A stretch of DNA of 64,000 bases from Chrysochromulina tobinii. Taxonomy: Eukaryota; Haptophyta; Prymnesiales; Chrysochromulinaceae. Location: the NCBI GenBank assembly GCA_001275005.1, contig JWZX01002881.1:1-64000 (forward strand). The letters are read 5' to 3'. The first letter of the stretch is position 1. Every line of letters starts with the position of its first letter. Made by a program: the position numbers and the translations under genes. Shown here piece by piece: positions 3,040 through 51,600 of the stretch. The notes below the pieces were generated by a model, which saw nothing but the letters and a program-made list of their open reading frames with translations, did not search any database and had not been told where the DNA came from.

Positions 3040-4559
3040 CTACCGGCGACGGGCCTTCGGCATTGTAAAGTGGCGTAGGTCCGAACCGGCCTCAGAGCCG
3101 CGCTCCTTCTCCAGGAGCTTCACAGCACTGTTTGCGAGTTTGTGCGACCACAGCATCCGCCGACAACTCCAGCCGCATCTGCTGCGACGTGCACTTGCTA
3201 TTCCTTCCTCATTCTTGGTTTCGTTCAAGGGCGGTAGCCAGCGGTTGGCCGTCAGCCATTCATGGCGCGCAAGCGCGGCTGTTCCGCGCGTCGCGCCAAA
3301 GGCGACCACCTGGTTTGGCTGGTCACCCATCCCCAGGAACGCCGTCCACGACGATGCGTTCCGTGCGCCATGCCCATGAGCCGTCTCAGCACTCGGATCG
3401 CTCCGTCGGATCCAGGCCAAACTGTCGGGAGAGGCGCACCTGTGGGGAAGCGCGGGCGCCGTGGTGAGCACGTGCTTGCAGGGCGAGCACTCGGATCGCT
3501 CCGTCGGATCCAGGCCAAGCTGTCGGGAGAGGTGCACCCGTCATCGGGTCTCTGTATACGACACGATCGGGCCGCACATTCGTACTCCGAGTCATACTTG
3601 CACCAAATCGCTGGAACGCCGCTGCGAATGAGAAGAGGCACCACATTGAAGCCTCGGCTCCAACGTGTGCTCTCGTTGCGTCTCGCTACGGTGAAGCCAG
3701 TGGCGGAGTAGCGGCAGATGCGCAAGGCTGGTGCGAGGCTTTGATAATACGCGTACAGCGCGCTCTCGATCCCGAGGCACTCTCGGCAGTGCCCTTGGGC
3801 GAGCCACGGAAGAACACCTAGGGCAAGGCGCCGGGCAGCGAAGGCGAACACGGCATGCCGACCGTTCAGTCCGCGCAGATGGTTGCCGTTCACATGATCC
3901 TGACCCTCTGTCACGTGGATCTCGTCAACTCGAGCGTGTACAACCCCAGGAGGGCACGCATAGAAGAAGTCGGACCGCGTCAACACAACCTGCTCGTACG
4001 CATCGCCTGGCAACGCGTCGAGCCGCCGGAGCAACATCATCCGAAGAGCCAGCACAATGGCTCCAGAGCCACGAAGGATTCGGCCCTGAGCGTCCCGCGC
4101 CCCGCCCCAAAGGCCAGTTGGCGCCGCCCAATTGGTGGTGACGGGTAAGCTCACGTTGCCACGCCACCCCTTTCCCTCCAGAAGTTCATCGATCGTCTCG
4201 TCCCAATACGTGGACTCGTTGTGTATCCATATGTGACGAGCAGCGCGCACTAAGGGACTTGCAATCGATGCATGGTGTGCAACGTCGGCATCAGATGCAA
4301 GTAACGCCAGATCTGCATGCAGCGGTCGGACAAGCTGTTGAACTGTTGAGTCCCAGGCAGCATGTCCTCCTCGGAGGTTGCCTATCATACACACGATCGT
4401 CGAGAGCGCTTTCACGCCGGAATAGGGCTGGCTAGGAGTGGCAATACCTCGCGCATCAGCGCAGCTAAACCATGGAATGCCGCCCTTAGGCAGTGGAAGG
4501 TGGCAACGTGGTCTCACGGGAGACGCTAAAAACACGAGGAACGGAAGAAGAGAACGCAT
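3040..4559 (-). CDS. Secretory glycosyltransferase-like protein (TRSD motif)
   Basis: Exons 3538-4559 and 3040-3439 join in phase 2 to give 473 residues ending in TAG. The first 20 residues form a signal peptide or anchor (LLPFLVFLAS). Conserved-looking blocks include ALSTIVCMIGNLRGG, RAARHIWIHNE, LRMMLLRRLD and VVLTRSDFFYACPPG. The last resembles the LFITRADLVF block of the protein at 25544-27163. Such blocks occur in algal nucleotide-sugar-dependent proteins of the Golgi, and the acidic Asp could bind metal. Asn-glycosylation sites are present. It is transcribed divergently from the FkbM-like gene at 4809, with 250 bases between them. Family membership is inferred from layout, not from a certain catalytic signature. 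Confidence 0.6.
3440..3537 (-). repeat. Family A introner with 51-bp target duplication
   Basis: The intron is 98 nt, GTGCAC donor and CTTCCCCACAG acceptor. Bases 3487-3537 at its 5' end repeat 3389-3439, the first 51 bases of the downstream exon, with two mismatches. Between the copies lies about 47 bases of family A core (CGCCGTGGTGAGCAC on the plus strand). Removal restores the reading frame. Confidence 0.85.
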
Positions 4560-4808
4560 CGGGGTGAAAGAAAGACGTTGGTGTCACCCGCATCGCGACT
4601 CGCTTGGGCGACGTGTCTGTCGGGGTCCTTCAGCCAGAGAGGGCAGCAGGGTCCATCCCATTCTCGAGTTCCTGTGAAGAAGTCTGTGCATGCAGTCTGA
4701 TCTCAACAAACACCGAGAGCGCGCGCGCGCAACTGCGGTAGTGTGTCATAGACCCGAGGGGATTCGCTTCGACTTTGCCTTTTTAGGAAATCGTGGATTT
4801 CTTGAGAG

Positions 4809-6241
4809 ATGTGTGCATGGCATTCACAAGTGAAGTGCCAGCCACACATGCGCTTCTCCGACAGCTCAAAATGGCTTGGGCCGCAACTTGTTGTTACCAA
4901 TTTGTCTGCTTGTGCACATGCATGCTTTGCTCACCCAAGGCGATGCTCGCACTTCCTACACAACGTGCAAAACGCCTGCTACTTTCTCGGAGCTCAGGTA
5001 GAAATCATGGAAGACGCGCCACAGCATCAGAGCGTCGCATGCCGTGTGCGCCCCAGTCACAAATCGTTCGTTTTTTGGATGCCAGCATACGTTTTTGACG
5101 ATCCAGACTGGGCAAATAAGCCGTATCCATACCTATACCGGAGAGGCGCAAAGGGCCTCACGGAACGCGATGCTGGAGGCTACGATAAGAGTCAGGGCAA
5201 TCTGTTCGCGCAAATGGAGCCACGCCTCTTTTTCAATGCGCCGCGTTTCGCTGGCGTGCCTCACCGCATTGAAGACCAAGAGTCGCATATGCCAGATGCG
5301 AAAGATAAGCCCTGCACAACTTACCAAGGTGCCTTGCAATGCTTCATTGAGCACGATGAGTGGATGATGGCGGATGCTTTCGTGAATCCGAGCCACACAA
5401 TCATCGAATTCGGCGCTCGCTATGGCACCACCTCCTGCCGTCTGGCTCGACTGACCAACAATTCGGGCAACGTCGTGAGCGTCGACCCAGATCGGCAGTC
5501 CACCATGTTTCTTCTCGCCAACCGTGAGACGCATCGCTGCAATTTTCATGCGATCAGTGGGACGGTCTCAGCTACTCCTCAACGCATCCGTGCCCGCCAA
5601 GGTTACGCTACGCGCACCGACCCCATCGAGCTCACCGGCGGCCGCGCTGGCCCGGAGGAGGGCGGCATTCGCAAACTTCCGAATTTGGGCATACTTCCAA
5701 ATTTTGGCTTCCGAGAGGTCGAGGAGCACATTGACTCCCTCATCATGATTGCCTCCCTCATCATGAGCGCCTCCCTCACCATGATTGCCTCCCTCATCAG
5801 GTCGAGGAGCACATTGGCTCCAAGATTAATGCGATCCTCATCGACTGCGAAGGGTGCATACGGTCCGTGCTCTCGATCCCAGGCCTTCTCGCGCAGCTGG
5901 AACTTGTCTTGATCGAGGAGGACATGTACATGCGTGACACAAATGGGACTTCTCCGTCCGAGGACCTGATCGACTATCGACTTTGGCACAGGCACCTCGA
6001 ACAGGCTGGCTTCCGTCAGGTGTGGCGTTCACATGACACCTTCGACCCCAAGAATAAGCCTTGGTCGCGCTTCCTCTATCACAGCGCGTGGGTGCGAACG
6101 ACCAACACAAGTTACAAGCAAGACGAGAACCAATGCCAACTCCACAAACGTGCGCAAGGGCTGTCCAACGAGCAACTGCACTGTTCGACTCTTCATGAGG
6201 GCCCCTGGGACCCTGGGAATGTGCTCGGAGGTGCGGTTTAA
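4809..6241 (+). CDS. FkbM-like methyltransferase with Cys-rich (PAN-like) N-terminus
   Basis: Exons 4809-5717 and 5801-6241 join in phase 0 to give 449 residues. The N-terminal 70 residues have regularly spaced Cys (LSACAHACFAHPRRC...NACYF) resembling a PAN/apple domain. The SAM-binding motif I is IIEFGARYGTTS, followed by VVSVDPD. Exon 2 supplies AILIDCEGC, matching the FkbM D-x-E-G block. FkbM enzymes usually O-methylate sugars. No signal peptide is evident at the chosen ATG, so an upstream exon may be missing. Confidence 0.65.
5718..5800 (+). repeat. Family B introner with 21-bp target duplication
   Basis: This 83-nt intron is on the plus strand, GT donor and CCCTCATCAG acceptor. Its first 21 bases (5718-5738) repeat the first 21 of exon 2 (5801-5821) with one mismatch. 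The rest is a short tandem array of CTCATCATGATTGCCTCC-like units. It shows that the family inserts in genes on both strands, in coding orientation. Confidence 0.88.
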
Positions 6242-6581
6242 AGCGGTTATTCCCAGGTGACGTGTGTGACGCGACGCTTAAACGTGTGACATCGGCGCGC
6301 CACCGTCGCGTGCAGAAATACGCGTATGCCCGATGCGCGCGTGGCAAATAAATGCGCGCGCCGTCCATACTGTGTGGCCAATGCGCGCCCTCTTTGAGGG
6401 CGGCCGAGGGCGTCACATCAAAATATGTTCTCATCAGGGAACCCACGCCGCCATGCGATGCATCGTGCGCCCTTGAGGTTCATGAGCATTGCATGCTGAT
6501 GGCCTCTGATGACGTGTGATGGCACGCCTCATGCGCCCTTGAGGGTCATGAGGACCCCAGGTTACGCCCATGACGGCGCCC
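6242..6581. other. Intergenic, convergent
   Basis: It separates the FkbM-like and transporter genes. A phrase containing GCGCCCTTGAGG and GGTCATGAG recurs at about 6460-6480, 6530-6550 and 6587-6605, the last overlapping the transporter 3' end. No gene is seen. Confidence 0.4.
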
Positions 6582-9206
6582 TCACGCGCCCTTGAGGGTC
6601 ATGAGCACGCCGAGCACGCCCACGACGGCGCCGATCGGCACGAGCGAGTACACCGCTGCACGCTCGAGGGCAGAGCCCGCCGGGCGCGCACGCACGTAGA
6701 TGAGGGCTGGGAAGATGTACACGATCAGCGCGCCCAACACCTGATGAAGGAGGCCATCGGAAGGCAACGCATCAGAGGTACGATCAGGGAGCGCACTCAG
6801 AGGTGCAATCAGAAGTGCAATCAGAGGTGCAATCAGAGGCAATCAGAGATGCCATCAGAGGCAATCAGAGGTGCCATCAGAGGCAATCAGAGGTGCCTCG
6901 ATCGTATCGCGATCCTCACGCACGGAGCCCGAGATGCCATCAGATGCCATCAGGTGCCATCAGTGGCAATCGTAGGCAATCAGGGGCAATCAGAGGGATT
7001 CGCACGGAGCCCGAGATGCCGACGACGAGGCCGATGTCGAGGACCGTGATGGCGATGGCGGTGATCGCGGCCAACAGGCCAATGGTCAGCACGTTCGCAT
7101 GCGTCGTCGTGAGCGCGAGCAGCGCGCGCGCGAGGAGCGTGCGCGGCGCCGTCGTGGGCGCGCCCTTGACGAGCGCCGTCGTGGGCGCGCCCTTGCCGAG
7201 CGCCGTCGTGGGCGCGCCCTTGGCGGCCGGTGCGCCGCCCTGCGTGGAGGAGGAGCGGAGAGCGGTCGAGATGAGCGACGCCGTCGACTCACGCAGCCCG
7301 AGCATCGCGAGAGGGAAGCCAAAGAGGATCGAGATGAAGGTGGCGACGCGTCCAAAGGTGGCCAGCATGTCGGCAGACGCGTAGTTGGAGAGCAAGTTGG
7401 ATTTCGTCACGTCGCCAAACGTCGCGTACCTGTGGGGAAGAGGGAGGGGGGCGCCGTGGTGAGCACTTGCATGCTGGGCGAGAGAGAGACGTCAAACGTC
7501 GCGTACCCGAGCCGCATCATCCCGAGGTAGAGGGCGGTGAGGATCCCAAAGGCATACCTGTGGGGAAGAGGGTGGGGGCGCGCCGTGGTGAGCACTTGCA
7601 TGCTGGGCGAGAGACGGAGCACTTGCATGCTGGGAAGTGAGAGGGCGGTGAGGACTCCAAATGAGGCGAGAGACGGAGCACTTGCATGCTGGGAAGTGAG
7701 AGGGCGGTGAGGACTCCAAAGGAGGCATGCGTACAAGCACGCTTTGCCCGAAGCGGGCCTCGGATCGGTGCTCGAGATGAGGGGGGCAATCAGCATGCAA
7801 TCAGCATGCGTACAAGCACGCTTGCCCAAAGCGGGCCTCGGAGCGGTGCTCGAGCGACTGATGAGGGGGGCAATCAGCATGCAATCAGCATGCGTACAAG
7901 CACGCTTGCCCAAAGCGGGCCTCGGAGCGGTGCTCGAGCGACCGGTAGAAGGCGGGCGCGTTGTAGTGGGCGATGTACGCGAGCCCCAGGTTCGATGTGA
8001 GCACGAGCGCCTGATGAGGGGGGCAATCAGGACGCAATCAGCATGCAATCAGCATGCAATCAGGTCGCGAGCCCCAGGTTCGATGTGAGCACGAGCGCCT
8101 GATGAGGGGGGCAATCAGGACGCAATCAGGACGCAATCAGCACGCAATCAGCATGCAATCAGCATGCAATCAGGTCGCGAGCCCCAGGTTCGATGTGAGC
8201 GCGAGCGCCTGAGCGTTGAGCTTCCACGTCGATGCGAGCTTGAAGGCGGGTGTGAGCGCCGCAGGCAGAGCCTTGAGCAGCTTGCCGGCCGGCAGGGCAT
8301 ACGAGCCATCGAGCGCTCGGATCGCCACAAAGAACGCAGTGTACACGACGGCGACGCACCTGTGGGGAAGCGCGAGCGCCGTGGTGAGCAAGTGCATGCT
8401 GGGCGAGCGCGCGCGGATCGCCTCCAAGAGCGAGCGCCGTATCGAGCGCCGTATTCACGACGGCGACGCACCCGAGCAGCGACGTGAACGCGAGCGCGGA
8501 CACGTCCTTCAGAAGGGAGAGAGGCGTCAGCGCTACCAGTGTGATGGCCGCGATGTTGGTCGCGCGCTCGTTGAGGCCTGCGAGCATGCGGGCACGAGGC
8601 ATTCGGTGGTCATCCGAGGCATTCGATGGTCATCAGTGGCAATCGGAGGCAATCGGCGGCGGCAATCACACCTTTGGCAATCCCCGTGAGAGAGAGAAGC
8701 TGTGTGGAAGTATCGCCCAGGATGCCTGCATAGATGATGGCCGCGCTGAAGCACATGAGCGCGATTGACGCGTCCACGATCCACGCGGTGCCTTCCCCCA
8801 GCGTGGCGGCCCACAGCGACTTGAATGACATTTGGCCGGTAAGCTCGCACGAGGCGCCGATCAGATGGAAGGTCCACCCGGAGATGATGCCGAGCGCCAC
8901 GCAGAGGAGCGTGGCGGGCACGCTGCCCACACCGCCTGCCATGCCAGCCGAGAGCGTCAGAATCCCCGCGCCCGCCACATTGTTCACGATTTGGATCACG
9001 GTGCCCATCAAGCTGACTGGCGCTGGCTCCTTCAGAGCCGGCACGGCACTCTTGCGTGCCGCAAGCAGCGACGGCGCTTGTGGCGCCCGCGGGCGCCGCT
9101 CGAGCGCTCTGGGGCGTGTGTCGAGCGTGTCGGCGCTCGTCGAGGCTAGGAACACCAGCGCTGCTGCGACCTTCAGCAGTCGCGCCATCGATCTCATCGC
9201 TTGCAA
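6582..9206 (-). CDS. SLC38/AAAP-family amino-acid transporter, 7 exons
   Basis: Exons are 8672-9206, 8472-8577, 8209-8359, 7898-8010, 7507-7557, 7006-7429 and 6582-6740. They join without frame breaks to 512 residues. A signal-like N-terminus and Pro/Arg-rich stretch precede about eleven membrane segments. AAAP hallmarks include NNVAGAGILTLSAGMAGG in helix 1, TLVALTPLSLLKDVSALAF, AHYNAPAFY, YLGMMRLGYATFGD and ISILFGFPLAMLGLRES. The family moves neutral amino acids by H+ or Na+ coupling. A loop holds a 27-bp tandem repeat encoding KGAPTTAL (7147-7220). Five of six introns carry duplicated exon sequence. The exon 3 donor at 8208 is GC. The final exon encodes the last membrane helices and ends with TGA. 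Confidence 0.8.
7430..7506 (-). repeat. Family A introner, minimal form
   Basis: This 77-nt intron begins GTACGCGACGTTTG, which repeats the start of the next exon at 7429, and ends CTTCCCCACAG. Between them is little more than the core GCATGCAAGTGCTCACC, so it approximates the smallest complete element. Confidence 0.85.
7558..7897 (-). repeat. Compound intron with three copies of an exon end
   Basis: The segment encoding EHRSEARFGQACLY is present as exon (7892-7942) and twice more inside the intron (about 7807-7857 and 7727-7776). The copies are separated by family B units (CTGATGAGGGGGGCAATCAG on the plus strand). Further in, family A cores and two diverged copies of the next exon's first bases (about 7630-7660 and 7697-7722) occur. 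The structure suggests several nested insertions or tandem duplications. The donor GTACGC and acceptor CCACAG at the outer ends restore the frame. Confidence 0.75.
8011..8208 (-). repeat. GC-AG family B introner, duplicated
   Basis: A 33-bp segment encoding ALVLTSNLGLA occurs at 7978-8010 (exon), near 8065-8097, and at 8176-8208. The copies are separated by family B arrays with GCAATCAGCAT units. Every copy starts at GC, so the donor of this intron is GC. Confidence 0.8.
8360..8471 (-). repeat. Family A introner with diverged long duplication
   Basis: It begins GTGCGTCGCCGTCGTG, as does the downstream exon at 8359, and ends CTTCCCCACAG. About 50 bases at the 5' end are a diverged copy of the downstream exon, which suggests an older insertion. 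Confidence 0.75.
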
Positions 9207-9291
9207 GTCTCGGTCGAATCTGCGTTGCGTCGTGTGGAGTGGAGATATTGACTAAACGGGAAACCCCCATTAGGAAACAGTCTGCGTAGCC

Positions 9292-11633: not shown

Positions 11634-13315
11634 TTGCCTCCGCCAAAGGTGCCCTTCCCAGGGCTAAGGTGCTTTATGGCGCCCGCTCCTGCGCCCGCCG
11701 CTGCCTTGGCAGTCTCCGAGCCGCCCTCCACCCGGCCATCGGGGAGCTCATGCGTCTGGGTCGCGAATCTGCACATCCGCAAGTGCGGTGGCACGACCGT
11801 GCGGTCCGTCTTCTCCAACATGTCCAACTGGACGCAGCTTGGGGGCTATTGCTCCGCGTCCAAGTTTGGCGACAGCAGCAAGAGCTGGAGCCAATTCGTG
11901 AATAGCTCCGAACGCGACGTGAATAGCTGGATGTATCAACACTACGTCACGTCCCACAACAACACGGGCAAGTTCTGGAGCGAGGTGCACTGCGACGAGG
12001 ACGTGAGCAACTTCAACGCGGGCGTGCGGCAGATGCGCGCCATGCTTGCACCCAAAGGGTGCCGCGTGATCACGACGCTGCTGCTGCGCGAGCCGGTCGA
12101 CCAACTGGTGAGTGACTGGACCTACTTCCGCCAAGACCCGGACAAGGTACGCACGAGCAGGCCGTCCGAGTGGGCGCCGAGGAAGCCCGAGAACCTGCTG
12201 CGATGGATGGCCGAGTCGCAGCGCGACTTTTGGACCGAGTCGGATCGCTCGCCCACGGCCCCGTGGCACGAGGCGAGATGGAATCCCATCAAGTTCCACG
12301 TCAACGGCACCACCGACACGTACCCGGTGCCACAGCTCCGCAAGTCATGCGCCGAGGCGCTCGCATTCTTCGAAGCCCAGATCGCCCAGATCGACCACGT
12401 GGGCGTGATCGACACCGCCGAGCAGTTTGCACAGTGGTGGCTTCTGCTCGCAGACGATGCGGGCTTCGATGCGGCAGTAGCGACGAGCGCGAGGCAGAAC
12501 ACGCGCATGCAAGTCTCGGTGCGCGACCGCCCGCGGCCCTCCCTTGTATGACGACTCAGCCGTTGGGGGTCTGCATGCAAGTGCTCACCACGGCGCGCCC
12601 GCACTCCCTACAGGTGCGCGACCGCTCGCGGCCCCTACCGCCGAAGGTCAGCGATGCAGAGCGGCAGGTGATGGCCGCTCTGAATGCATGCTCGACTCGT
12701 CTCCATCAATTCGCAAAGGATATCCTCGCCGCGCGCGTCGATGGCACGATCGCGGTCTTGAGCGCTGCCGTGAGCGCTGCCGCCGCCGACCGCCGCTTCC
12801 ACACGCGCCAGTCCGACATAGCCATCGCCCGGTCGCTCGGCGCAGCCGTGCATGCACCGGTACCGGTACCCGACATAGCCATCGCCCGGTCGCTCGGCGC
12901 AGCCGTGCATGCACTGGTACCGGTACCCGACATAGCCATCGCCCGGTCGCTCGGCGCAGCCGTGCGTGCACCGGTACCGGTACACAAAGCGAGCACCAGC
13001 CTCGCAGAGGACGACACAAGCGTGTACGCGCGCGCAAGGCGCTTGGTGCAGCTATGGGGCGGCGAGAACCTCGCGAGCCTAGAGGCGCTTCACGTGGATC
13101 TCGATGAGGAGGAGGAGGAGGAGGAGGAGGAGGAGGACGAGGAGGAGGCGGGGGAGGGCCTGGACTCTTCCGACTCGTACTTGTACACGCTCAAGCCCTC
13201 TCACGAGATCGACCCCAGCTTGAATCCACCGTACAGCTATCTCTCCTACGGGGGTGGGCCGGAGCGTCCCCCCGGACTCGACCCGAGCTACAACGGCGGG
13301 GAGCCGCACCAGTGA
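11634..13315 (+). CDS. Sulfotransferase-family protein with coding minisatellite
   Basis: Exons 11634-12518 and 12614-13315 join in phase 0 to 528 residues. The 5'-phosphosulfate-binding loop is HIRKCGGTTVRS and the 3'-phosphate block is LLREPVDQLVSDW. This places it with Golgi carbohydrate sulfotransferases that use PAPS. The usual membrane anchor is not obvious at the N-terminus, so the start may be incomplete (a second ATG lies at 11676). Exon 2 carries a 19-residue tandem repeat (three copies) and a Glu-rich tract. The C-terminus is Pro/Tyr-rich. Confidence 0.7.
12519..12613 (+). repeat. Family A introner with 21-bp target duplication, plus strand
   Basis: The intron is 95 nt with GTGCGC donor and CCCTACAG acceptor. 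Bases 12519-12539 repeat 12614-12634 with one mismatch. The core GCATGCAAGTGCTCACC is at 12573-12590. Here the host gene is on the plus strand, so the core is on the plus strand too. Confidence 0.88.
12814..12984 (+). repeat. 57-bp coding minisatellite, three copies
   Basis: Three nearly identical 57-bp units start at 12814, 12871 and 12928. Each encodes DIAIARSLGAAVHAPVPVP or a close variant, and each contains GGTACCGGTACC or a near match. The unit length keeps the frame. Confidence 0.9.
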
Positions 13316-30200: not shown

Positions 30201-33200
30201 GCAGCGTGATCGAGAGACCGGCCGAACGAACCTGTGGGGAAGGGGTAGGCGCGCCGTGGTAAGCACTTCGCCCTTGATGTGTACGAGCGCGCCATGGTGA
30301 GCACTTGCATGCGCACCTTCTCCCTCAGGATGTGAACGAGCTGCGGGTCAGTGTAGTCGGCGAAGAGGAAGGCGTCCTCGGGCCGAAAGCGCCTCGCGAG
30401 CCCCGGGTTGGCATCGCGCAGCAGCGCGTTCACGTCGTCCTCGTAGCCGCACATGATGATCGCGATGTCCTCCCCGGGGGTACCTTGCACCTGATGAGGG
30501 GCGTCATCGGATGGCAATCAGAGGCGATCAGATGGCAATCCGTTCGTCATCAGATGGTCCTCAGATGGCAATCAGGGTACCTTTTGCACAATGGTATCGA
30601 CGACATTCGCGCAAAAGGAGTTGGACGAGCGCTTCGGGTTGAGGCCGTAGCACTCGTCGATCAGCAGTACCTGGTGAGCATCGTGGTGAGAGGGCGTCGT
30701 GGTGAGCATTTGCATGCGCTCGGCCTGTTCGCGCCGTGATGAGCATTTGCATGCGCTCGGCCTGTTCGCGCCGTGGTGAGCATTTGCATGCGCTCGGTCT
30801 GTTCGAGTCGTCGATGAGCCGCACCTTGCCTCGGCAAGCTTCGAGAAGCTCGACCGTCTTGCGCTCGCTCTCACCGACCGCAGAGCCCAAAAAGTCCGAG
30901 GGTCCCTTGACGACCACCTGATGAGGGAAGCCATCAAGGGAGGTCATCAGGGAGGTCATCAGGGAGGTCATCAGGGAGGTCATCAGGGAGGTCATCAGGG
31001 AGGTCATCAGGGAGGTCATCAAGGAGATCGCACCTCGCCGTTCGAGAGGAAGCCGAAACGCTTGAGGAGTCGCCCAAAGAGCTGTGGAAGGAGGGCCAAG
31101 CGCCGCGGTGAGCACTTGCATGCACGGTAGGGGTCCTGGGTTGAGCGCTCCGCGTACCTTGGCGACGGTCGTCTTGCCAGTGCCGGGCTTGCCGTAGAAG
31201 ATCCGATGGAGAGGGACATAGAGAGGCTTCTCGCCTCGAGCCTCGCGCTCCCAGTTGCCCAGCTGGAGGTGCATCAGCTCGCGCACCTGATGAGGGATGC
31301 AATCATATGCAATCAGATGCAATCAAGGGGTGCAATCAAGCTGGAGGTGCATGAGCTCGCGCACCTTGGCCTTCACCTCGTCGAGGCCGGTGAGTGTCTC
31401 TAGCTCCTTGAGCTCAGGCGAGTTGTCGAGCACCGGCTTGGCACCCTGATGAGGGGCGCAATCAAGAGGCGTCCTCAGAGTTCATCAGAGTGCTCATCAG
31501 TGGGATCATCAGCGCTCATCAGCAGGATCATTAGTGCTCATCAGTGGTATCATCAGTGCTCATCAGTGGCCTCCGTACCAGCGCATCCTCCCGCGAGATG
31601 GTCGTCGCCATCTCAGCGCTCGGCGTCTCGCCTCCGTCGATGAGCATCGAGAGGCGCTCCTCTTGTCGCTTGATAGCTTGCTCGATCTGATTGCGCACCT
31701 GATGAGGCAGCCAATCAGCATGCACTCAGCCACGCAGCATTACGAGGTTGAGAATCTGGCGGCAATCAAGGGTTGCAATCAAGGGGTGCAATCAAGAGGC
31801 GTCATCAGAGGTCATCAGAGGTTGAGGATCTGGCGGCGGCGCACCGCGCGCGCGTTGCCAAAGCCGCGCTGCCCCGCGCCGTAGGCGAGGCGCGAGGCGA
31901 CGATCGACGCGACCGACGGGCTTGCCTGATGAGGGGAGCAATCAGCATGCACTTTTTCAGCGATGCACACTCAGCGATGCACGCAGCATGCAATCAGGTT
32001 GTCGCGTTCGCGCCAAAAGAGCTTGCCGACTCGACGACCATCTTGCGGTCGCTCATCATCTTGTGATAGATGGCGCGCAGCTCGGGCTCGAGATAGTCCT
32101 CGAAGACCCACCTGATGAGGGGCGTAATCGGAGGTCATCAGTGGCAATCAGCTGGCAGGTAGCATGCACTCAGAGGCGCACTCACGTGTTTGGGAAGCGC
32201 GACGCGAGCCCCGGGTTGAACGAGAGTAACGTCTCGACTTCATCACGGTAGCCCGCAAGCACAACCGAGCACTCGCCACGCTTATCCTCCGCAAAGGTGA
32301 GCAGCAGGTTCATGATGTCGGCGCCGTCCTTGTTGTTCTTCGGGTCGAGCTGGTACACCTCGTCAATGAAGAGCACGCCGCCGTCGACCTGCTCGAGCAT
32401 CTTCTTGAACTCGTCCGCGCCGTCCCGGAGCAGATTACCGCCGGTGGTGCTCCGTATTTCGGAGCTCGAGCGCAGCTTGAAGTCGTGCAGGATCTTGGCC
32501 ATCAGACGCGACACCTCCGTCTTGCCCGTACCTGATGATAGAGGCCGTCAGGCGTCATTAGAGGCGTCATTAGAGGCAATCAGAGAGGCCACCAGGGGCC
32601 ATCATTAGAGGCCATCAAGGGCAATCAGAGGCCATCAGACGTGCCCGGGTTGCCGATGAAGACAAAGTGGCGGTTCACGTCGGCGGTAGCGTCCGCCGGC
32701 TTCAGGCTTGCAAGCTCGACGGAGTACGCGACGTTGAGCGCGTCGCGCTTGATGCGCTCGAGGCCGACCATCGCCATCAACTTGTCCATCGCGCTCGACT
32801 TAATCTCGGGGTGCTTGAGCTTGTACCTGATGAGGGAGGCCATCAGCCATCCTCAGAGGCCATCAGAGGCCATCAGAGGCCATCAGAGGCCATCAGAGGC
32901 CATCAGAGGCCATCAGTGGTCATCAGAGGCCATCAGAGGCCATCAGAGGTCATCAGAGGTCATCAGAGGCCATCAGAGGCCATCAGAGGCCATCAGAGGC
33001 CATCAGAGATCATCAGACGTACCGCTCCCACTGCGCCTTCGCCAGCGACGCGGATGCCGATTCGAGCGGATCGTCGTCGTCGTTCTCCATCAGCTTCTCG
33101 ACCGTATCCTTATTTGGGTCGAGCCAGAGCGCCGCCTCTGCCTCGAAGAGGGCGAACGTGCGCAGGTACAGCGATGCACGCAGTCGGTGCTCCTTGGCGG

Positions 33201-36200
33201 GCTTGAGCAGCTTGTGCGCGAGATAGCACCCGTAGAGTACGACGGGGTCGAAGGCGGCCTGCGGCATCGGCGTCTCGAAGGTGCGCAGGTACACCTCGAT
33301 GCGTCGACGCGGCTCGACTGGGTCCCAGCCCTGAGGAAGGAGGCCATCAGGCGTCATCAGGCGTCATGACAGCTCATCGATCGACATCAGAGCTCATCAG
33401 AGCTCATCCGGCTCATCAGTGGCAATCAAGGTACCTCCTTGAGCTGCGAGAGTGCGGAGTAGATTTGGCAATCAGTGGCAATCAGTGGCCATCAGTGGCA
33501 ATCAAGGTACCTCCTTGAGCTGCGAGAGTGCGGAGTAGATCTGGCCGCGCGGATCCGCCGTCTGGTCGCAGAGCTCGTACCTGATGAGGGAGGCAATCAG
33601 AAGGGTCATGGCATGGTACACGGCGGCAATCAGAGGATCCTCCGCGGCAATCAGAGGCAATCAGAGGCAATCAGACGTACGCCTTCTGGTACTCCTTGCG
33701 CAGTAGATGGCACACGCCCTGGCGCAGCTGCGCGTCGGCGCTCTTGAACTTGTCGTCGATCCGAGACGTCGCGTCCGCACCAAACGAGGCCTCGAGGGCG
33801 GTGTACATGGCGCGCAACGCGATGGGCGGCAGCAGTCGCGCCGCCTCGAGCGTTGGGCGCATGGCGCGCGCGCGGGCTGCTCGCGGCAACGGCTGTGCCT
33901 CGCCCTCGGACGACGGCGTAACCACCAAGGGCGGCCGGAGGTCAGAGGTCGAGGCGGGAGGGGCGGTGGCCTCCGCCCCCGCCCCCGCCGATGCCGCCGC
34001 CGCCGCCGCCGACCCCGCCGCCGCCAATGACGACGACGACGCGGACGATGGCATCGGTGCAGACGCATTCTTAGCGGCTGCGGGCGTGCGCTCCATGAGG
34101 AGAGAATCGAGCTCATCGACGGCCGCACGGCGCTCGGCAGAGGCGGCTGCCTCGGCCGCCCGCTCAGCCGCCTGCTGCTCCTTTTGCAGCCGTGCGGCGG
34201 CTAGGCGCGCATTGACGACGTCGAGTGCCTCGACGAGCACCTGATGAGGGGTGCCATCACGAGGTGTCATCAGAGGTCATCAGAGGTCATCAGAGGTCAT
34301 CAGGGGTCATCAGAGGGCCGTGTAGATCGGTCCGAGCGCCGTAACGAGCACCATGTCACCGCTGACCGGTGTGAAGTGCTTCACGTGGAGCTCCGTCGCC
34401 AAATGATACACCTTCTCACCGACGCCATCGGCCACATGCCCGCCGGAGCGCCCGGCAAGATCGATAGCCTTCAGAATGCGCGTGGGCAGCCCTGATGAGG
34501 AAGGTCATTAGAGGTCATAGAAGCCAAATGAGAGGCAAGTAGAGGTCATGAGAGGCGAACAGCTTGCGTACCGCACCCCTCCGCCTCGGCTTGGAATCAG
34601 AGGTCATCAGAGGCACTCATATGTCATCGGAGGCAATCAGCGTACCGCACCCCTCCGCCTCGGCTTGGAATCAGAGGTCATCAGTGGCACTCATATGTCA
34701 TCGGAGGCAATCAGCGTACCGCACTCCTCCGCCTCGGCTTGGAATCGCTGCCCTCGCTCACCACTGGCCGAGAGGAGTTTGAGGAGGCCTTTGAGTGCGA
34801 TGAGCAGCGTAGGCATCACGTACGCCATGTCGGAGCTCGAGCCTTCGCCCTCGCCGCTCACCCCGCCGCTCACCTGAGGAGGGAGGCCATCAAGGCAGCT
34901 GATGAGGGCGGCCATCAAGGCAGCTGAGGAGGGAGACCATCAAGGCAGCTGATGAGGGAGGCCATCAAGGCAGCTGAGGAGGGAGGCCATCAAGGCAGCT
35001 CACTGAGATCATCCTTGCAAAGAGTTCGACCGGCTTGATCTTATTGATTGCCGAGAGCATGAGCAGGCCCATCGGCAGCAACCCCTGCTTGCCCTTCACC
35101 TCGACCTGCACCTGCGTCTTGTCATCGCTCAATTTCGTCACCTTCCCAATGTCGGAGGCAGACTCAAACGGCGCGAGCACCGTTGGGGCCTTCTCGCCCT
35201 GAGGCTTGTCCGAGAGCATGACCTTGTCGCCGACCTTGGTCGACTTGACCTTATGCGCCTCCTCCCACTTGGTAAGAGACAGGCACAGGCTCTCGACCTC
35301 ACCATCTCCCGCGCAATTCTCGAGCGCGACCGCGAGAACACCGCCCGCCGCGGCGCGCACCGTCGTCGGACGCGTCTCGTCGATCGAGATCGCGTAGATC
35401 GGTCCTGATGAAGGAGATTATCAGGATATTATGATACTACGTACTATGTCATCAGAGGTCATCAATAGGCCATCAATAGGCCATCAGAGCACCGTACACC
35501 TCCGGGTCGAAGGCGAGCTCCGCCCGTAATCAGAGGTCATCAGAGGTCATCAGAGGTCATCAGCGCACCGTACACCTCCGGGTCGAAGGCGAGCTCCGCC
35601 CGATGCTTCTCAAAATGGCAGAGCGTCCTCGCGAGCAGTACGAGCGCCAGCTTGCACACGGGCTCATCGTCGAGCGCCGCCGCGTCGCAAAAGTGCTTCA
35701 CGATGCTCCCGTTCTCCTTCATCCGGTTGAGGACCACCGCGCCGGCCGTCTCGCCGCTCGCCGTCGCTGCTGCCGCGGCGGCGGTGTCGCCCGTCGACTC
35801 CGGTTCGTCATCCGTATTAGGCAAACCCATGCCTGTGCCTTCGGCCTCGGTGACCGTGTTGAGCACGTCGAGCGGCCGCAGCAGATGGGCATGTCGCGCC
35901 GGCGGCGTCGCCGGATCACCCTGTTTGGCTTTGAGGTACTCGGCAATGCGCTTGGTCGCCTGCTCCACCTGATGAGGGAGGCAATCAGTCGCGCTCAGCT
36001 CGCAATCAGGAGACCATCAAGAGGCGACGGCGCTCGATCGCCTGCTCCACCTGATGAGCTAGGCAATCATCGTCATCAGAGGCAATCATCGTCATCAGAG
36101 GCAATGCACCTCGCTTGGCAGCCACTTGGCCACGTTGTCGCACAGAGCTTGCACCGGCGCCATGCCACCCAGCGTCATCGCCTTGATCAGGTCGAGCACC

Positions 36201-37630
36201 ACATCGCGTAGCGCCGCCTCGAGCGCCTCCATCCCCTTAGCTTCCTTCTCCTTGTCGCGTAGGGGCTCGTCCGTCACCGCGAGGAGGAGCATCACGATGT
36301 CCTAGACGACTTCTCGCTCGAGAAAGGCGCCGAGGGCGGTCGCCTGCTCGGCCGTGGCGGCGGCGCCGAGTTGGGCGGCCTGTTTCTTGTCGATGCGTGC
36401 GGCGAGCGCATGCAAGAGAGTACCGGCCTCGACGAGGTACCTGAATGAGGGAGACTATCCGAGGTCATCAGAGACCATCCGAGGCAATTAGAGGTCATCC
36501 GAGGCCATCGAGGCCATCCGAGGTCATCCGAGGCAATGGAGGCCATCAGAGGCCACATCGGAGGCCATTACTAGGGGATTGGAGGCCATCAGAGGTCATT
36601 AAGAGGCCATTAAGAGGCCATTAAGAGGCCATCAGAGGCCATTAAGAGGGTATTAAGAGGGGATCGGAGGTGATTGGAGGCCAGCCGACGTACTGGAGGG
36701 TGGCTGGCGAGAGCTTCTTCGTGCCCAGCATCGCCTTCGACTGCAGCGAGCTCGAGAGCGAGAAGGTGCACTGTGGATCGATCTGCAGGGGCGGCCGCAG
36801 CGAGGGCGATGCGCGCAGCATCTTCGCAAGCGTTCCGAAGAGGCCAGTGAGGTTCCACTTGGGGAGGAGCTCGCAGAGAGGGTTCTTCTTCTCTGGATCG
36901 AGCGCTTGGCTCATATTGGCCCGTGAGCGTTGCACGCTGCTCTCGCCCCACGTGATGGCGAGCGACAGCACTGGCCCCATCGATTCGGCAGCTCGAAAAT
37001 CGATGCTCGTCGAGATCATCGAGATCGTCGCGTCGGCTGTGTCGCCGCCGCCGTCGGTGCCGCTCTCGGCGAGGGCACGGCAGATGCGCTCGCACGCGCT
37101 GAAAACCTGCAGCACGCTCATGCCGCGCATGAAGATGTCGGTGAGCGTCTCGGCACGCGCCTTTTCGACGCCCTCAAACGGCGGCTCCGCAAGCAACGAG
37201 CGATCCGAGCTCTTCTTCTTCTGCTCATTCTCCATCTTGCGAGCACGTATCGTGCTGAGCAGCGCCGCGCACTCGTCAAAGAGGACCTCGAAGCTCTGGC
37301 GCGCGCCCTCCATGGCCTCCATCAGCGTCGCTCCCTCCGCCGAGCGCAAGAAGCGTCCCCACAGCTCGCACACCTGATGAGGGACGCCATCAGCATGCAC
37401 TCAGAGAGGCAATCAACGGCAATCGAAGAGGCCATCCAGAAGCGTCCCCACAGCTCGCACACCGAATCCAGCGTGCTCACGTAGCTCGCAAGCGTCGCGA
37501 GCGCCGTGACTGCATGCAGCTGCACCCGCTCCGTGCGCATCGGATGGGAGAGCACCCACGAGATGACGCGCAGCGACGGCACGAGGATTTCGTCATTGGG
37601 CGAGTCATCGGCGTGGAACACGGACTCCAT
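27287..37630 (-). CDS. Giant triple AAA+ (CbxX/CfxQ-type) protein with thioredoxin-like domain, 27 exons
   Basis: Exons: 37463-37630, 36694-37373, 36110-36440, 35569-35968, 35004-35404, 34720-34873, 34352-34491, 33681-34240, 33511-33580, 33023-33330, 32645-32826, 32186-32531, 32027-32111, 31845-31925, 31579-31698, 31365-31445, 31158-31286, 31034-31081, 30825-30917, 30590-30670, 30317-30490, 29956-30231, 29789-29878, 29462-29650, 29159-29354, 28969-29057, 27287-28849. They keep phase over 2344 codons. The N-terminal third is helical. AAA+ 1: GNPGTGKT, GGVLFIDEVYQL, NPGLASRF. AAA+ 2: GKPGTGKTT, VLLIDECYGL, NPGLARRF. AAA+ 3: GAPGVGKAT, degenerate LFIDDAGGM. A thioredoxin fold follows, with monothiol WCEPSQ and cis-Pro AMPTF. 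The C-terminus is CxxC-like and Lys-rich. An in-frame TAG at 36302-36304 interrupts the model. The start is the first ATG after the RPB1-like sequence and is uncertain. The role could be a remodelling chaperone. Confidence 0.7.
29058..29158 (-). repeat. GC-AG family B introner (copy 1 of a transposed pair)
   Basis: A 101-nt intron with GC donor and CCCTCATCAG acceptor, phase 1, lies just after AAA+ 3. Its first 26 bases match the first 26 of the next exon (29057 downwards) with a few substitutions and an indel. That long match marks it as the probable original insertion relative to its twin at 31926-32026. Confidence 0.85.
29879..29955 (-). repeat. Family A introner
   Basis: This 77-nt intron begins GTGCGCCACGTGGCGGCTCGAC. 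The next exon begins GTGCGCGTGGCGCTCGAC, the same string with two small indels. The core and the CTTCCCCACAG acceptor are intact. Confidence 0.75.
30491..30589 (-). repeat. Intron with two in-frame alternative donors
   Basis: The 5' end GTGCAAAAGGTACCC repeats the downstream exon start GTGCAAGGTACCC. Two GT donors (30589 and 30580) are both in phase 0. Use of the second would insert Val-Gln-Lys into AAA+ 2. Confidence 0.7.
30671..30824 (-). repeat. Family A introner triplicated; target copy spans Walker B
   Basis: The intron begins with a copy (GTGCGGCTCATCGACGAC) of the Walker B coding sequence that starts the next exon (GTACTGCTGATCGACGAG). Three tandem family A cores of about 40 bases follow (GCGCATGCAAATGCTCAC type). 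Confidence 0.8.
30918..31033 (-). repeat. Intron made of a 12-bp tandem repeat
   Basis: Seven copies of GGGAGGTCATCA (plus strand) fill most of this 116-nt intron between about 30941 and 31024. The acceptor is CCCTCATCAG. Confidence 0.85.
31287..31364 (-). repeat. Family B introner with 26-bp target duplication
   Basis: The 78-nt intron begins with a copy of the first 26 bases of the next exon (GTGCGCGAGCTGATGCAC...) with one mismatch. It lies just upstream of the exon carrying Walker A of AAA+ 2. Confidence 0.87.
31926..32026 (-). repeat. GC-AG family B introner (copy 2 of a transposed pair)
   Basis: This 101-nt intron is in phase 0 after AAA+ 1. Aligned base by base with 29058-29158 it shows about five differences and no gap. 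It includes the old exon-derived 5' flank of that intron, although the exon that follows here shares only the first six or so bases (GCAAGC). Confidence 0.85.
32827..33022 (-). repeat. Intron composed of 10-bp branch-point-like repeats
   Basis: About seventeen copies of GAGGCCATCA (plus strand) run from about 32837 to 33012. On the coding strand each unit reads TGATGGCCTC and, in tandem, provides a CTGAT motif every 10 bases. Donor GTACGT, acceptor CCCTCATCAG. Confidence 0.9.
33331..33510 (-). repeat. Intron containing a second copy of the upstream exon end
   Basis: A 48-bp segment encoding IYSALSQLKE plus the donor GTACCTTGATTGCC occurs at 33498-33545 and again at 33421-33468, with one mismatch. 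Either donor could be used. Confidence 0.8.
34492..34719 (-). repeat. Intron with three copies of exon end and donor, 74-bp period
   Basis: The segment encoding FQAEAEEC plus GTACGC occurs at about 34714-34746 (exon), 34640-34674 and 34566-34600. The intervening bases are family B units. Three potential donors therefore compete. Confidence 0.82.
35405..35568 (-). repeat. Intron with an identical 38-bp exon copy
   Basis: Bases 35489-35526 are identical to 35565-35602, which encode ELAFDPEVYG and the donor. Three family B units (CAGAGGTCAT) lie between them. Perfect identity suggests very recent duplication. Confidence 0.87.
35969..36109 (-). repeat. Intron with duplicated acceptor and exon start
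   Basis: About 36020-36055 repeats the acceptor TCATCAG and the exon start GTGGAGCAGGCGACC found at 35968. This creates a possible alternative upstream acceptor. Confidence 0.7.
37374..37462 (-). repeat. Family B introner with perfect 25-bp target duplication
   Basis: The first 25 bases of this 89-nt intron (37438-37462) are identical to the first 25 of the next exon (37349-37373), encoding VCELWGRF. It is among the youngest-looking insertions in the window. Confidence 0.9.
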
Positions 37631-46402: not shown

Positions 46403-47204
46403 GCACGCAATCAGCATGCGGCCATTGCTGCGGTGTGCAAATGCGTCGTGGGCGGCGCAGAGACGCACCGGACCTGAACATGTGCCGAACATGCGCCGGG
46501 GAGGCGAAGGCGTCTGTTGTGAACACTGGCTGTGAAGAGGAAAAACGTGTCACCTCATTATGGACCCCCCACCGCGATCTCCATCGACGCCCGTCCTCCC
46601 CTGCTGGCTTCCGGAGCACATTCGATAGGCTTCCTTAAGACTTGACTTGCGAAAAAAGCGCCACCAAAGACGCCGAAATTGTATATCGTCATACTGTAAT
46701 GTATAGTGGTGTGCCGTCATAGAACACCAAAATAGACGCCTGCCATTGAAGAATGTCCCCGAGTGGCACGTGACATCAAGAGGCATTTCACGCTTTCGGT
46801 GCCCACCCCACTCAGTTTGTAATCAGGGTATGAGGAAGGGGTGCAAATCCAGATATTAATCCCTCCCCTACCCCCTTGGGTAAAACTCACCCGCCGTAAC
46901 AGACTTAGTAGCCGTGAGCGTGCGCCAGATGAGAATCTGCTCCAAAATGCGCGCCCGCGAGTGCGCTGCTCGCACTAAACATGACGCTGCTTCTGCGTTT
47001 CAACATAACGCGCACGACCTCCGGACAACCAAGCACGAGGGCCTCTATGGACGGAGGTGTGGCCGTGCCGCCTGCAGTGTTTCTTACCCCCTGACAGTGA
47101 CTCGCTCCCCGGCTGTGCGTCGCACCGCGCGCACTCAAACGATGATTCTGAGGCGCATGCCGTTCAGTCTCATAGGCTTGGCATCTTTTCCAAGGCTGAG
47201 CGTC
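46403..47204. other. Intergenic with dispersed repeat
   Basis: It contains a copy of the dispersed repeat at 47001-47065. The rest shows no gene. Confidence 0.4.
47001..47065. repeat. Dispersed repeat, copy 1
   Basis: This segment with AAGCACGAGGGCCTCTATGG and ACGGAGGTGTGGCCG matches 60952-61023 and 61040-61113. Copies also share the flank CGCGCAC.ACCTCCGGAC. Confidence 0.75.
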
Positions 47205-48571: not shown

Positions 48572-48610
<39 letters not shown>

Positions 48611-51600
48611 CAACAGCCCAGCGAGCCCACGTGCACGAGAAGCTGGATGGCGGTGCGACACACCTTGAGGACCGCCGGGGTGAGGCCCGAGGCGATGCCC
48701 GAGGCCGAAAGCTCTGCGGTTGGCTGCGGCTGCGAGCCGGCGGGCTGCGTCGACTCGAAGAGAATGTTCTTGACCATCTCCGGCACGCCGCTCAGCCCAG
48801 ACTCTTCGAGGTACTCACGGAGCGGTGTGGCGCACGCCGCGCTGCCATCGGCATGGAGCGGCAGCAGCAGCGCGTGCAGCAGCGCAAAGTACTGGATGAG
48901 CAGCGGCTGGTGGCGCGCGGCGCCCGAGAGGGTCATCGCACACGCACCGCAGTAGTCGCGCAGCATGTGCAGCCCGCCCGAGAACAGCACCACCACGACG
49001 AGGTCCGCGCGCAGCTTGCGGTGCGCCTCGGCCACGGGCGGCGTCGCGATGACGAGGCGCAGCACCTTGAGCAGCGGCAGCAGCAGCGCATCGGGCGGCG
49101 CGGAGACCGCGATGGGTGACGACAGACGCCCATCGAGCGCCTCTTGTCGGGAGTCCAAGTCGACCGCCGCCGGCAGCAGCCCAAAAGCGAGCTTCTCAAC
49201 CGTGGCCGTTAAGAGCAGGTACGCGCGGTTCTGCGGCAGGGCGCACGCCGCGAGCAGCGCACGCGTGGCCGCCGTCTTGGTCGAGGCGCGCACCGCCGGC
49301 GGCGTCGTCGAGGCGGTTGAGAATGGTGCGGCCGTGCCTGCCGCGTCGGCGACACCGGCCATCGCGAGAGTGACAAGAGATTCGAGTCCGCCCTGCGTGC
49401 GCACGGTGTGAAGGTCTCGTTCACGCCCTGTCTCGAGGAGCCTGCACAGCTCCCACGCGCACGTCTCCGCGCCGTCGCAGTTGGGCTGCGAGGCGAGCGT
49501 GGCGAGCTCGCCGAGCAGCTTGAGCGTTCGCTTGGAGCCTTGCGCCGAGCCGGGGCCGCCCCAGAGCTGCTCCAGCTGCTCGATGTGAAGGCTGCTGGCT
49601 GTGGCCGCCATGCGCTGGCGCACCTTTTTGGCGCGGGCGCGCAGCTTGCGCAGCCTCACGCGCTCCGCCTCGCGCACCTCGGCCTGCGCCGCCTCCACCT
49701 GCGCGCGCAGCGGGGAGCGGAGCAGGTCGTGGACGCGGGAGCTGATCTCGAGCTGATCTCGAGGTGTGGTCGTCGAGAGGGCCGCGAGGTGGCTGGCCCA
49801 GGTGGAACCGCCGCCCGACGTGGCCAAGTTCGACGCCTCGTCGCCTTCATCCTTGGCGGCGAGCGCGGCGAGCGTGGGGGGCACGGCGACCACTGCCCCG
49901 TCCGTCGCGGCAAACTCGTCGACCTCTTCACAATCGGCCTCGGCGCCTTCGTCGCCTTCGTCATCCGTCGTCCTTGACGTCCTTGACCTTCGCGCCACCG
50001 CCGAGGCTGAGGACGGCGTTGGCTCCGCCGCCTCAGCCTCGGCCTCGGCCTCCTCGTCCTCGAGAAGCTCTCCGCCGCCGCCGCCCGTGCCTCCACCGCC
50101 ACCGCCGCCGCCGCCGCCACCGCCGCCGCCACCGCCGCCGCCGCCGCCGCCCTCGTCGCCCGAGACGGAGTAGTAGCCCGACTCCGAGGCGCCGCCTATC
50201 GAACCGCCCGTCGAGTCTGCCCTCGAGTGACCGCCGCGCTTCCGCCCATTGCGCTTGCCGCCGCCGCCCTTGTTGCGCCTGCCGCCGCCGCCCACCCAGC
50301 CGCCGCCGCCGCCGCCGCCGCCCACGACGGCGCCCTCGAGGGCGGCGAGGATGGACGGGTCGATCAGCTCCGACTCCGACTTGGACGAGCGCCTCTCCGC
50401 CGTCGAGACGCCATCCGTCGTTGAGTTGGCCTCCTCGGCCAGCGTGGCGCGCCGCGCCTCGCGAGTCTGCTGCGCCTGCACCGTGCGCTCAGAAGCCACG
50501 TGAGCTTGCGACATGAGCATCCGAATGTGCAGCAGACGGCGCTCGTTGGCCTCGGTAATCTTGCGCTCGAGCGCGCGACGCTTCTCCGCCTGCTCCGCGA
50601 GAGCCGAACGCGCTGTGGTGAGCACTCGCATGCAGGGCGAATTCTCAGTGGCAATCAACGCGACTGCTCCTCGAGCTCAAGCCTGCTCGTGCGCGCTGTG
50701 GTGAGCACTTGCATGCAAGGCGGGGCATCAGTGGCAATCAACGCGCCTGCTCCTCGAGCTCAGCCTGCTCGCGCCGCGAGATGACGTCGAGCCGCTTCTG
50801 GCTCTTCTGCGCGGCACGGTCGGCGACCGACTGCGTGAACTCCGTCCAGCGATGGTAGGCCTCGTCCACCTTGGAAGTGTGCACCTCGGTGCGCGCGTCA
50901 TCCATGCGCTTGCGCTCGAGCAGCCGCTCATTGGCGGCCTTCTCGCGCTCCGCGTTGGCCGCGGCCTGCTTGCCCAGATGCAGCTTGCGCCGCTCCTCCG
51001 CCTCGTTCATCTTCAGGGCGAGCTGCGCCTTTCGCTCCTCAGCCTCCTCCACCGCTGGGTCAGTGCTGTGGGACTTGATGAACGCCACCTCGTCCACCTT
51101 GCGTGACTCGAGACGCGCCTTGGAGGCCACCTTGCCGATGTGTGCCTCCCGGTTCGCCTCAGCCTTCTTATTGCGCTCCTCGATGGTGGCAGCCTTTGCG
51201 GACTTCATCTCCTCCTGCCGCTTGCGCACCTGCGGAGCGGGCGCCGTGTTGAGCACTTGCATGCGAGGCAGGGTTGGGGCTCGCGGACTTCCTCCTCAAC
51301 ATGCTTCATCAGAGGTCATCAGAGGTCATCAGAGGTCATCAGCGGACTCCCTCCTCAATACGCTTGCGCACCTGCGCCTCGTGCTCCCGACGCTGCTGCA
51401 GCCGCTGCGCCTCCTCGGCAGCCTTGCTCGCGCGCAACGCCTCGGCGTTCTTCTCGCGCTGCAGCTGGAGCTCATGCAGCTCCTCCGCCGTGCGTCGGTC
51501 GGGCGAGAGCAGCTTCTCTCGCTTCTCCTGCCGGCCAGTCGAGTCGGCAGACGAGCCCAGCGTCCCCACGCTGCTCCGGCGACGGCTCGGCGACGGCACG

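What the first reader, a model, noticed from the sequence alone, without database searches (positions are those of the whole stretch)
3389..51371. Introner-like elements whose target duplication supplies the splice donor
In many introns the bases after the acceptor are also present at the 5' end of the intron, starting exactly at the splice site. Examples: 3440-3537 (51 bp), 5718-5800 (21), 7430-7506 (14-17), 8011-8208 (33), 12519-12613 (21), 29058-29158 (26), 31287-31364 (26), 37374-37462 (25, perfect). The element core supplies the branch-point-like motif and acceptor. Target duplications of 17-51 bp are much longer than the 8 or so bp I know for algal DNA-transposon introners, so the mechanism may be different (for example repair-associated tandem duplication).
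Basis: partly seen in the sequence, partly recalled or inferred. Interest (0 to 1): 0.95.

Follow-up and report, generated by a model that had tools for sequence, protein, structure and literature searches.

The report
Introns built from copied exon ends
In this unnamed eukaryote many introns consist of a short repeated branch-point module plus a 12-53 base copy of the neighbouring exon that supplies the missing splice site, which points to introns spreading by copying and repair and not by a classical transposon, in a form that the stated filter of a major survey would remove.

Summary
Observation confirmed. In the window plus 41 loci of the same genome (316 kb; 37 loci picked for family A, 4 random), 71 of 105 family-A intron ends carry a copy of the downstream exon at the intron's 5' end (63 of 2100 mismatched pairings score as high). 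The copy is 12-53 bp (median 27), starts exactly at the junction in 52 of the 71, and begins with GT in 49 of those. Protein homology supports splicing: a PRP8 gene carries four such intron units, and with them removed 895 residues match human Prp8 end to end. A 94%-identical environmental PRP8 has one copy and no intron at all three sites. The inserted part is short (39-112 bp in family A), without detectable inverted repeats; its splice-site end is exact, the other end ragged, with microhomology at testable junctions. Nearest core relatives tend to lie on the same contig. Individual mirror cases have the copy supply the acceptor.

Best reading: one end of an existing intron is copied into a staggered lesion, and fill-in duplicates the exon piece. 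DNA or RNA template is unresolved. A published survey required similarity within 10 intronic bases of both splice sites and would miss these. No RNA-seq or whole-genome scan.

The parts
3440..3537 (-). family-A intron; intron copy of exon 3486-3537, exon copy 3388-3439 (52 bp, 50 identical), core with CTCAC and CTTCCCCACAG acceptor
5718..5800 (+). family-B intron in an FkbM-like methyltransferase gene; intron copy 5718-5738, exon copy 5801-5821
   Evidence: homologues with one copy
7430..7506 (-). family-A intron in an amino-acid transporter gene; intron copy 7493-7506, exon copy 7416-7429
   Evidence: Pfam Aa_trans aligns across the junction
8011..8208 (-). family-B intron, GC donor, two tandem (33-bp exon copy + decamer core) units; intron copies 8176-8208 and 8066-8098, exon copy 7978-8010
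8360..8471 (-). family-A intron; intron copy 8456-8471, exon copy 8344-8359 (16 bp exact); same transporter gene
12519..12613 (+). family-A intron; intron copy 12519-12539, exon copy 12614-12634
29058..29158 (-). family-B intron, GC donor, gapped copy of about 25-26 bp
29879..29955 (-). family-A intron with gapped exon copy, below the score threshold, judged by eye
31287..31364 (-). family-B intron in a gene with an AAA-like P-loop (Pfam AAA hit below its cut-off, and not across the junction); intron copy 31339-31364, exon copy 31261-31286
33435..33510 (-). mirror arrangement: about 35 bp of upstream exon (33511-33545) repeated at intron 3' end (33435-33469), supplying the acceptor; decamer core supplies the donor; the next unit repeats GTACCTTGATTG
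35969..36050 (-). family-B intron, 21-bp copy (19 identical)
37374..37462 (-). family-B intron, perfect 25-bp copy; intron copy 37438-37462, exon copy 37349-37373
50664..50746 (-). mirror arrangement, class-C core starting GCGCGTTG and ending near CACAGCGC; upstream exon end repeated at intron 3' end
50590..50663 (-). second class-C unit directly behind 50664-50746; its 3' part resembles that of a unit in L010
51230..51371 (-). family-A variant core with diverged exon copy

Best explanation
These are spliceosomal introns, many of them young, made by copying one end of an existing intron into an exon at a staggered lesion. The copied piece is short: branch point plus acceptor (A and B), or donor plus branch point (mirror cases). 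At its splice-site end it is exact. At the other end it joins the target at a variable point, with microhomology where this can be tested. Fill-in of the stagger, or a template switch that returns to an earlier point, duplicates 12-53 bp of exon. If the copy starts with GT/GC, or in mirror cases ends with AG, it provides the missing splice site, the mRNA is unchanged, and selection keeps the event. No dedicated transposase is needed: introns seed further introns, often with relatives on the same contig. Shown: anatomy, end precision, microhomology at 17 junctions, local relatedness, protein-level support for splicing, one copy in related proteins. Inferred: the lesion, the fill-in, and the selection step. 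I lean slightly to a DNA template (local microhomology-guided template switching); excised intron RNA as template is nearly as likely.
For: Copy length varies (12-53 bp, n=61) and 19 of 46 ungapped copies are perfect. In the 43 family-A elements printed the ragged end lies from 0 to some tens of bases upstream of the shared core; the inserted part is 39-112 bp in 52 offset-0 cases. At 17 readable junctions (14 family B of 28 copies, 3 mirror of 7 that I gave) mean microhomology is 1.82 against 0.71 expected, 10 of 17 with at least 2 bases, resampling p 0.00035; the other junctions had no readable period or failed the start rule, and 2 of the 3 mirror ones show none. For family A only a 5-mer enrichment near the copy end was seen (0.072 against 0.028 per position). 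One family-A intron (L009 5077) carries 24 bases, 21 of them identical, resembling the exon-derived part of the window 3440-3537 intron, next to TGGATCCGA, which is present in both. Nearest core relative on the same contig: 21.4 of 58 against 2.2 permuted, largest of 2000 permutations 8.8 (A); 15.1 of 73 against 6.6, sd 2.6, largest of 1000 18.2 (B). No inverted repeats detected in family A. Splicing support.
Against: No RNA-seq, and no pair of strains with and without an intron. End precision (52 of 71 at base 1) fits an RNA end or a true element end just as well; a few elements have extra bases between acceptor and copy (L020 4087: six). The DNA-template hint (similar exon starts in related pairs) is weak: p 0.003 and 0.018 become 0.04 and 0.08 when one possibly paralogous pair is dropped, and a Mantel test on the smaller set gave p 0.099. 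Mean similarity within contigs (not nearest neighbour) showed no effect (p 0.54). The mirror scan shows no overall enrichment. Class C cores look fixed at both ends by eye, as a true mobile element would. I did not search copies systematically for exon sequence flanking a source intron.
Confidence: 0.62

Rival explanations
1. Excised intron RNA is the template: a reverse transcriptase (or a repair polymerase) copies the intron RNA from, or to, its exact end at a nicked exon, as in target-primed reverse transcription, and the other cDNA end is joined by microhomology.
For: Exact splice-site end, ragged other end, variable duplications and microhomology at the ragged end are the pattern known (recalled) for truncated LINE insertions.
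Against: The mirror cases need the opposite polarity (exact 5' end, ragged 3' end); strong same-contig relatedness needs a cis effect; no reverse transcriptase could be looked for genome-wide.
Confidence: 0.25
2. A non-autonomous DNA transposon (introner in the classical sense) with an unusual integrase that makes long variable target-site duplications.
For: Families of similar cores; class C cores end at about the same place in several copies by eye; splice-site recruitment from the duplication is known in introners (PMC9860276, first part of the Results section read).
Against: No inverted repeats detected in family A; duplications of 12-53 bp instead of the 3-9 bp cited there; ragged ends with microhomology.
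Confidence: 0.1
3. Plain tandem duplication of an exon segment with AGGT, with later decay of the 3' half into a branch-point region.
For: Tandem (copy + core)n arrays exist (L010, L022, L045, third PRP8 site), and tandem duplication is a described intron-gain route (PMC3443670 passages).
Against: Family-typical cores stand beside 19 perfect copies, so the core did not decay from the same duplicated exon.
Confidence: 0.02
4. Assembly artefact or retained coding repeats, not introns.
For: No RNA data were available.
Against: An environmental protein (P0001, 97% identical) reads into the same intron with the same residues, so a second assembly holds it; unspliced reading gives stops or frame shifts at the introns tested; spliced PRP8 matches human Prp8 over equal lengths of 895 residues.
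Confidence: 0.01

Closest known systems
Introners (Gozashti et al. 2022, PMC9860276; passages, first part of the Results section and one Methods section read)
   Same: Families of similar introns in many genes, with one splice site carried and the other recruited from a flanking duplication (their Fig. 2B and 2C, legends).
   Different: Duplications cited there are 3-9 bp (4 and 8 in the figure legend); here 12-53 and variable, with no inverted repeats detected and a ragged end. Their pipeline required similarity to begin within ten intronic or five exonic bases of both boundaries, which introns starting with 12-53 private bases fail.
Amoebophrya introner elements (PMC7789003, passages read)
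   Same: Repeated introns with direct repeats at the boundaries in a marine protist.
   Different: There direct repeats are 3-5 nt with 8-20 nt inverted repeats and mostly non-canonical splice motifs; here GT/GC-AG.
Intron gain in double-strand break repair (Daphnia type, reviewed in PMC3443670, passages read)
   Same: Direct repeats from staggered ends filled in around an inserted piece.
   Different: There short repeats and ad hoc fillers; here the inserted piece belongs to a repeated intron family.
Direct repeats near splice sites (Rogers and Bendich 2025, PMC11782384, abstract and passages read)
   Same: Direct repeats at intron borders, some with one copy in intron and one in exon, 4-30 bp.
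   Different: 213 assorted introns of several classes, mean repeat 11.4 bp; in the passages seen, no shared core and no tie to one boundary.
Small tandem duplications at staggered breaks (PMC8355091, abstract start and passages read)
   Same: Fill-in at complementary 3' overhangs followed by end joining duplicates the overhang.
   Different: No inserted intron core and no splicing; induced breaks in mouse embryonic stem cells.

Membership tests
Introner (broad sense: intron family that creates new introns by insertion) | Many introns in different genes share a core | tested here: met
   105 family-A cores with an acceptor, in 40 of 42 sequences; 131 family-B acceptors in 25 sequences searched; 37 of the 42 sequences were chosen for family A
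Introner (broad sense) | Insertion absent in relatives, coding sequence otherwise intact | tested here: met
   caveat: protein sequences only. P0049 seems to read through an intron of its own, so its contig is probably unspliced
Introner as detected in Gozashti 2022 | Similarity beginning within ten intronic bases of both splice sites | tested here: not met
   the first 12-53 bases of the intron are a locus-specific exon copy in the 61 measured; criterion read; their pipeline itself was not run
DNA-transposon (MITE-like) introner | Terminal inverted repeats | tested here: not met
   family A only: longest complementary run mean 3.29 against 3.31 shuffled
DNA-transposon (MITE-like) introner | Short target duplication of constant length | tested here: not met
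   12-53 bp
DNA-transposon (MITE-like) introner | Related autonomous element in the genome | not testable with these tools
   The genome search gave no further answer
TPRT-type retrotransposed intron | Exact 3' end, ragged 5' end, variable duplication | tested here: inconclusive
   met by A and B; opposite polarity in mirror cases
Tandem genomic duplication intron | Whole intron derives from the duplicated exon | tested here: not met
   shared core beside perfect copies
Break-repair intron gain | Flanking direct repeats and microhomology joins | tested here: met
   repeats; microhomology at 17 junctions, 14 of them family B
Spliceosomal intron | Removed from mRNA | tested here: inconclusive
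   protein homology supports it; no RNA data

The most novel reading that the evidence does not exclude
A transposase-free mode of genome-wide intron gain: intron ends are copied by break repair or template switching into exons, the repair duplication itself supplies the missing splice site, and the long direct repeats would also allow scarless loss, so introns multiply as a by-product of DNA repair plus splicing.
Probability: 0.45. Interest if true: 0.93.

Novelty: new variant of a known kind. Interest (0 to 1): 0.82.

Why it matters
How introns arise in bulk is an old open question, and the current answer leans on DNA transposons. Here young insertions preserve their junctions: exact at one splice site, ragged with microhomology at the other, long variable duplications, and in one case a trace of a source intron. 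That makes break repair, transposition and RNA templating separable in one genome. The stated filter of a main survey removes exactly this architecture, so it may be overlooked elsewhere. The long direct repeats also predict easy, scarless intron loss.

Tried and rejected
Chance or low complexity: rejected for family A by mismatched-pair controls and perfect copies. Decamer satellites as the source of the repeats: satellite-like repeats were filtered out. Searches (general boundary scan, exact boundary only 7 of 239; score test for family B) are weak or negative on their own; see the observation check. One search's microhomology control was one-sided and is replaced. Acceptor choice as the cause of the GT excess: ruled out. 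Rfam scan of the window at gathering thresholds: no hits. Taxon: not identified; the listed Prp8 relatives of 93-94% identity are unnamed environmental sequences, two from JGI and one from a Tara collection, which suggests, but does not show, a marine organism. Nine paper searches listed no title or abstract start that describes 12-53 bp splice-linked duplications in introners; most papers listed were not opened, and the library lacks most subscription papers and all preprints. Huff 2016 and Roy 2023 were seen only in reference lists. A point that does not help a splice-site homology model: the last two bases of the upstream exon are AG in only 20 of 58.
Full report
WHAT WAS CHECKED. The window is the first 64 kb of contig C1722 of an unnamed assembly of 53.15 Mb in 2253 contigs. 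In each, the exon behind the acceptor is repeated at the 5' end of the intron, beginning at the splice site. A scan of the window found more. I then used 41 further stretches of the same genome (L009-L049): 37 around hits to the window's own element, 4 (40 kb) random. Together with the window this is 316,463 bp in 42 sequences.

FAMILIES. Family A has a core close to GCATGCAAGTGCTCACCACGGCGC followed by a pyrimidine tract and usually CCCCACAG; CTCAC fits the general branch-point consensus (recalled). Family B is an array of about 10-base units such as CTGATTGCCT ending in CCCTCATCAG. Class C begins with a donor (GYRCGTTGATTGCC) and ends near CACAGCGC, sharing its middle with A.

COUNTS. With up to 5 substitutions the family-A core has 115 hits; 7 are class C, 3 have no acceptor within reach, and 105 were analysed. 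Of 105, 71 have an exon copy of score 12 or more; 63 of 2100 mismatched pairings do. Of the 71, 52 start at exon base 1, and 49 of these 52 start with GT. The 61 copies that start within 6 bases measure 12-53 bp, median 27. Of 46 ungapped ones, 19 are perfect. The 52 introns are 60-142 bp long and the part that is not copy is 39-112 bp. A neutral acceptor rule gives 72 of 105 against 48 of 2100, and GT or GC behind 85 of 105 acceptors. Several of the 34 misses look like gapped or decayed copies by eye. The 5' splice site reads mostly GT[AG]CG[CT]. For family B, 131 acceptors were taken from 25 sequences; 60 reach score 14, and 33 of the 60 start at exon base 1; for 66 of the 131 the best of ten mismatched pairings also reached 14, so the score alone proves nothing there. 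Twenty-eight pass a filter against decamer sequence inside the copy (18-40 bp, median 26; 27 ungapped, 11 perfect).

MIRROR CASES. In others the end of the upstream exon is repeated at the 3' end of the intron, so that the copy supplies AG and the core supplies the donor. Examples: L014 6396 (17 bp perfect), L029 6919 (30 perfect), L029 300 (34), L019 3954 (22), L026 7754 (25), L032 7307 (22) and window 33435-33510 (about 35). By my reading 9 of the 20 hits are of this kind; the rest look like coding repeats, satellites or antisense images. The arrangement as a whole is not enriched in that scan (ratio 0.7), so it rests on the cases. In PRP8 and in L034 a mirror unit stands directly in front of a family-A unit, so separate use of its acceptor is not proven there.

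SPLICING. The methyltransferase-like gene with intron 5718-5800 becomes one open frame when the intron is removed. Environmental homologues P0002-P0008 run through the junction with one copy; P0001, 97% identical, reads into the intron with the same residues. The amino-acid transporter matches Pfam Aa_trans above its cut-off over 65 residues that span the junction of 7430-7506; the other two fragments tested there stayed below the cut-off. Locus L013 holds PRP8. Between positions 3590 and 8342 of its reverse complement five intron units were seen: a mirror unit (24 bp, 22 identical) stacked on a family-A unit (34 bp perfect), a family-B unit (36 bp perfect), a family-B intron made of three tandem (exon copy + core) units, and one decamer intron without an obvious copy. 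With the introns at the first three sites removed, query residues 1-895 match residues 415-1309 of human Prp8, equal lengths from end to end (the alignment printed is to another Prp8 entry, shows no gap, and is cut near its end). P0049, a 94% identical environmental protein, has no intron and one copy at all three sites, and seems to read through an intron of its own near residue 1156, which suggests that its contig is unspliced. On that reading intron and duplication arose together in this lineage, or were lost together in the other. Whether the contigs behind P0002-P0008 are DNA or RNA is not recorded.

HOW IT WAS MADE. (1) The splice-site end of the core is exact in most cases while the other end is ragged. 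(2) At 17 junctions where the decamer period allows a prediction, microhomology with the target is 1.82 on average against 0.71, p 0.00035 (14 family B, 3 mirror; two of the three mirror ones have none). In family A only a motif enrichment near the copy end was seen. (3) The intron L009 5077 carries, between its own copy and the core, 24 bases resembling (21 identical) the exon-derived part of the window intron 3440-3537, next to TGGATCCGA, which both share. I read this as a trace of a source intron; it is one case. (4) Cores have their nearest relative on the same contig in 21.4 of 58 cases against 2.2 in permutations, and for B 15.1 of 73 against 6.6, where the largest of 1000 permutations was 18.2, after removing copies with similar downstream exons. 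A test on mean similarity within contigs showed no effect (p 0.54). (5) Related cores sit before slightly similar exon starts (p 0.003 and 0.018, 0.04 and 0.08 after dropping one pair, Mantel 0.099), a weak hint of a DNA template. (6) No inverted repeats were detected in family A. Together this fits copying of an intron end into a staggered lesion better than transposition. The exactness of one end is the best argument for an RNA template. I leave DNA against RNA open, with a slight lean to DNA.

KNOWN WORK. The first part of the Results section of Gozashti 2022 describes 3-9 bp duplications and splice sites recruited from them. Its Methods require that similarity between two introns begin within ten intronic or five exonic bases at both ends. 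Introns that start with 12-53 bases of private exon copy fail that rule. Staggered-break fill-in with small tandem duplications, and intron gain in break repair, are described in PMC8355091 and PMC3443670 (passages). Short direct repeats at intron borders in general are reported in PMC11782384 (abstract and passages).

LIMITS. No RNA data, no whole-genome scan (genome search was unreachable), taxon not identified, most loci chosen for family A. In the random 40 kb there are 3 family-A cores and 21 family-B acceptors, 16 followed by GT/GC, 5 with a copy at offset 0, all in L029; genome-wide numbers are not claimed.

Noticed in passing
L013, reverse complement 3590-8342 (PRP8 gene): A core spliceosome gene itself carries these introns, one being three tandem (36-bp exon copy + decamer core) units.
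   Followed up: yes
L010 3602-3894; L045 398-558; L022 977-1070 (minus); L017 4713-4861 of the reverse complement: Tandem (exon copy + core)n arrays, for example about five units of 73 bp in L010; the same repeats would allow scarless intron loss.
   Followed up: partly
family-A introns with copies (58): 5' splice site is mostly GT[AG]CG[CT], with C at +4 in 41 of 52, unlike the usual GTRAGT (recalled); the U1 snRNA of this organism would be worth reading.
   Followed up: no
window 50590-50746; L034 474-542; L013 reverse complement 4768-4956: Two intron units stacked at one site with no exon between them, which suggests repeated use of the same spot.
   Followed up: partly
P0049 near residue 1156: The related environmental PRP8 seems to have an intron of its own where this genome has none.
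   Followed up: no
window 9409-10239 (minus): Coding repeats of 123 bp in one long open frame, ARM-like by eye (recalled label).
   Followed up: no
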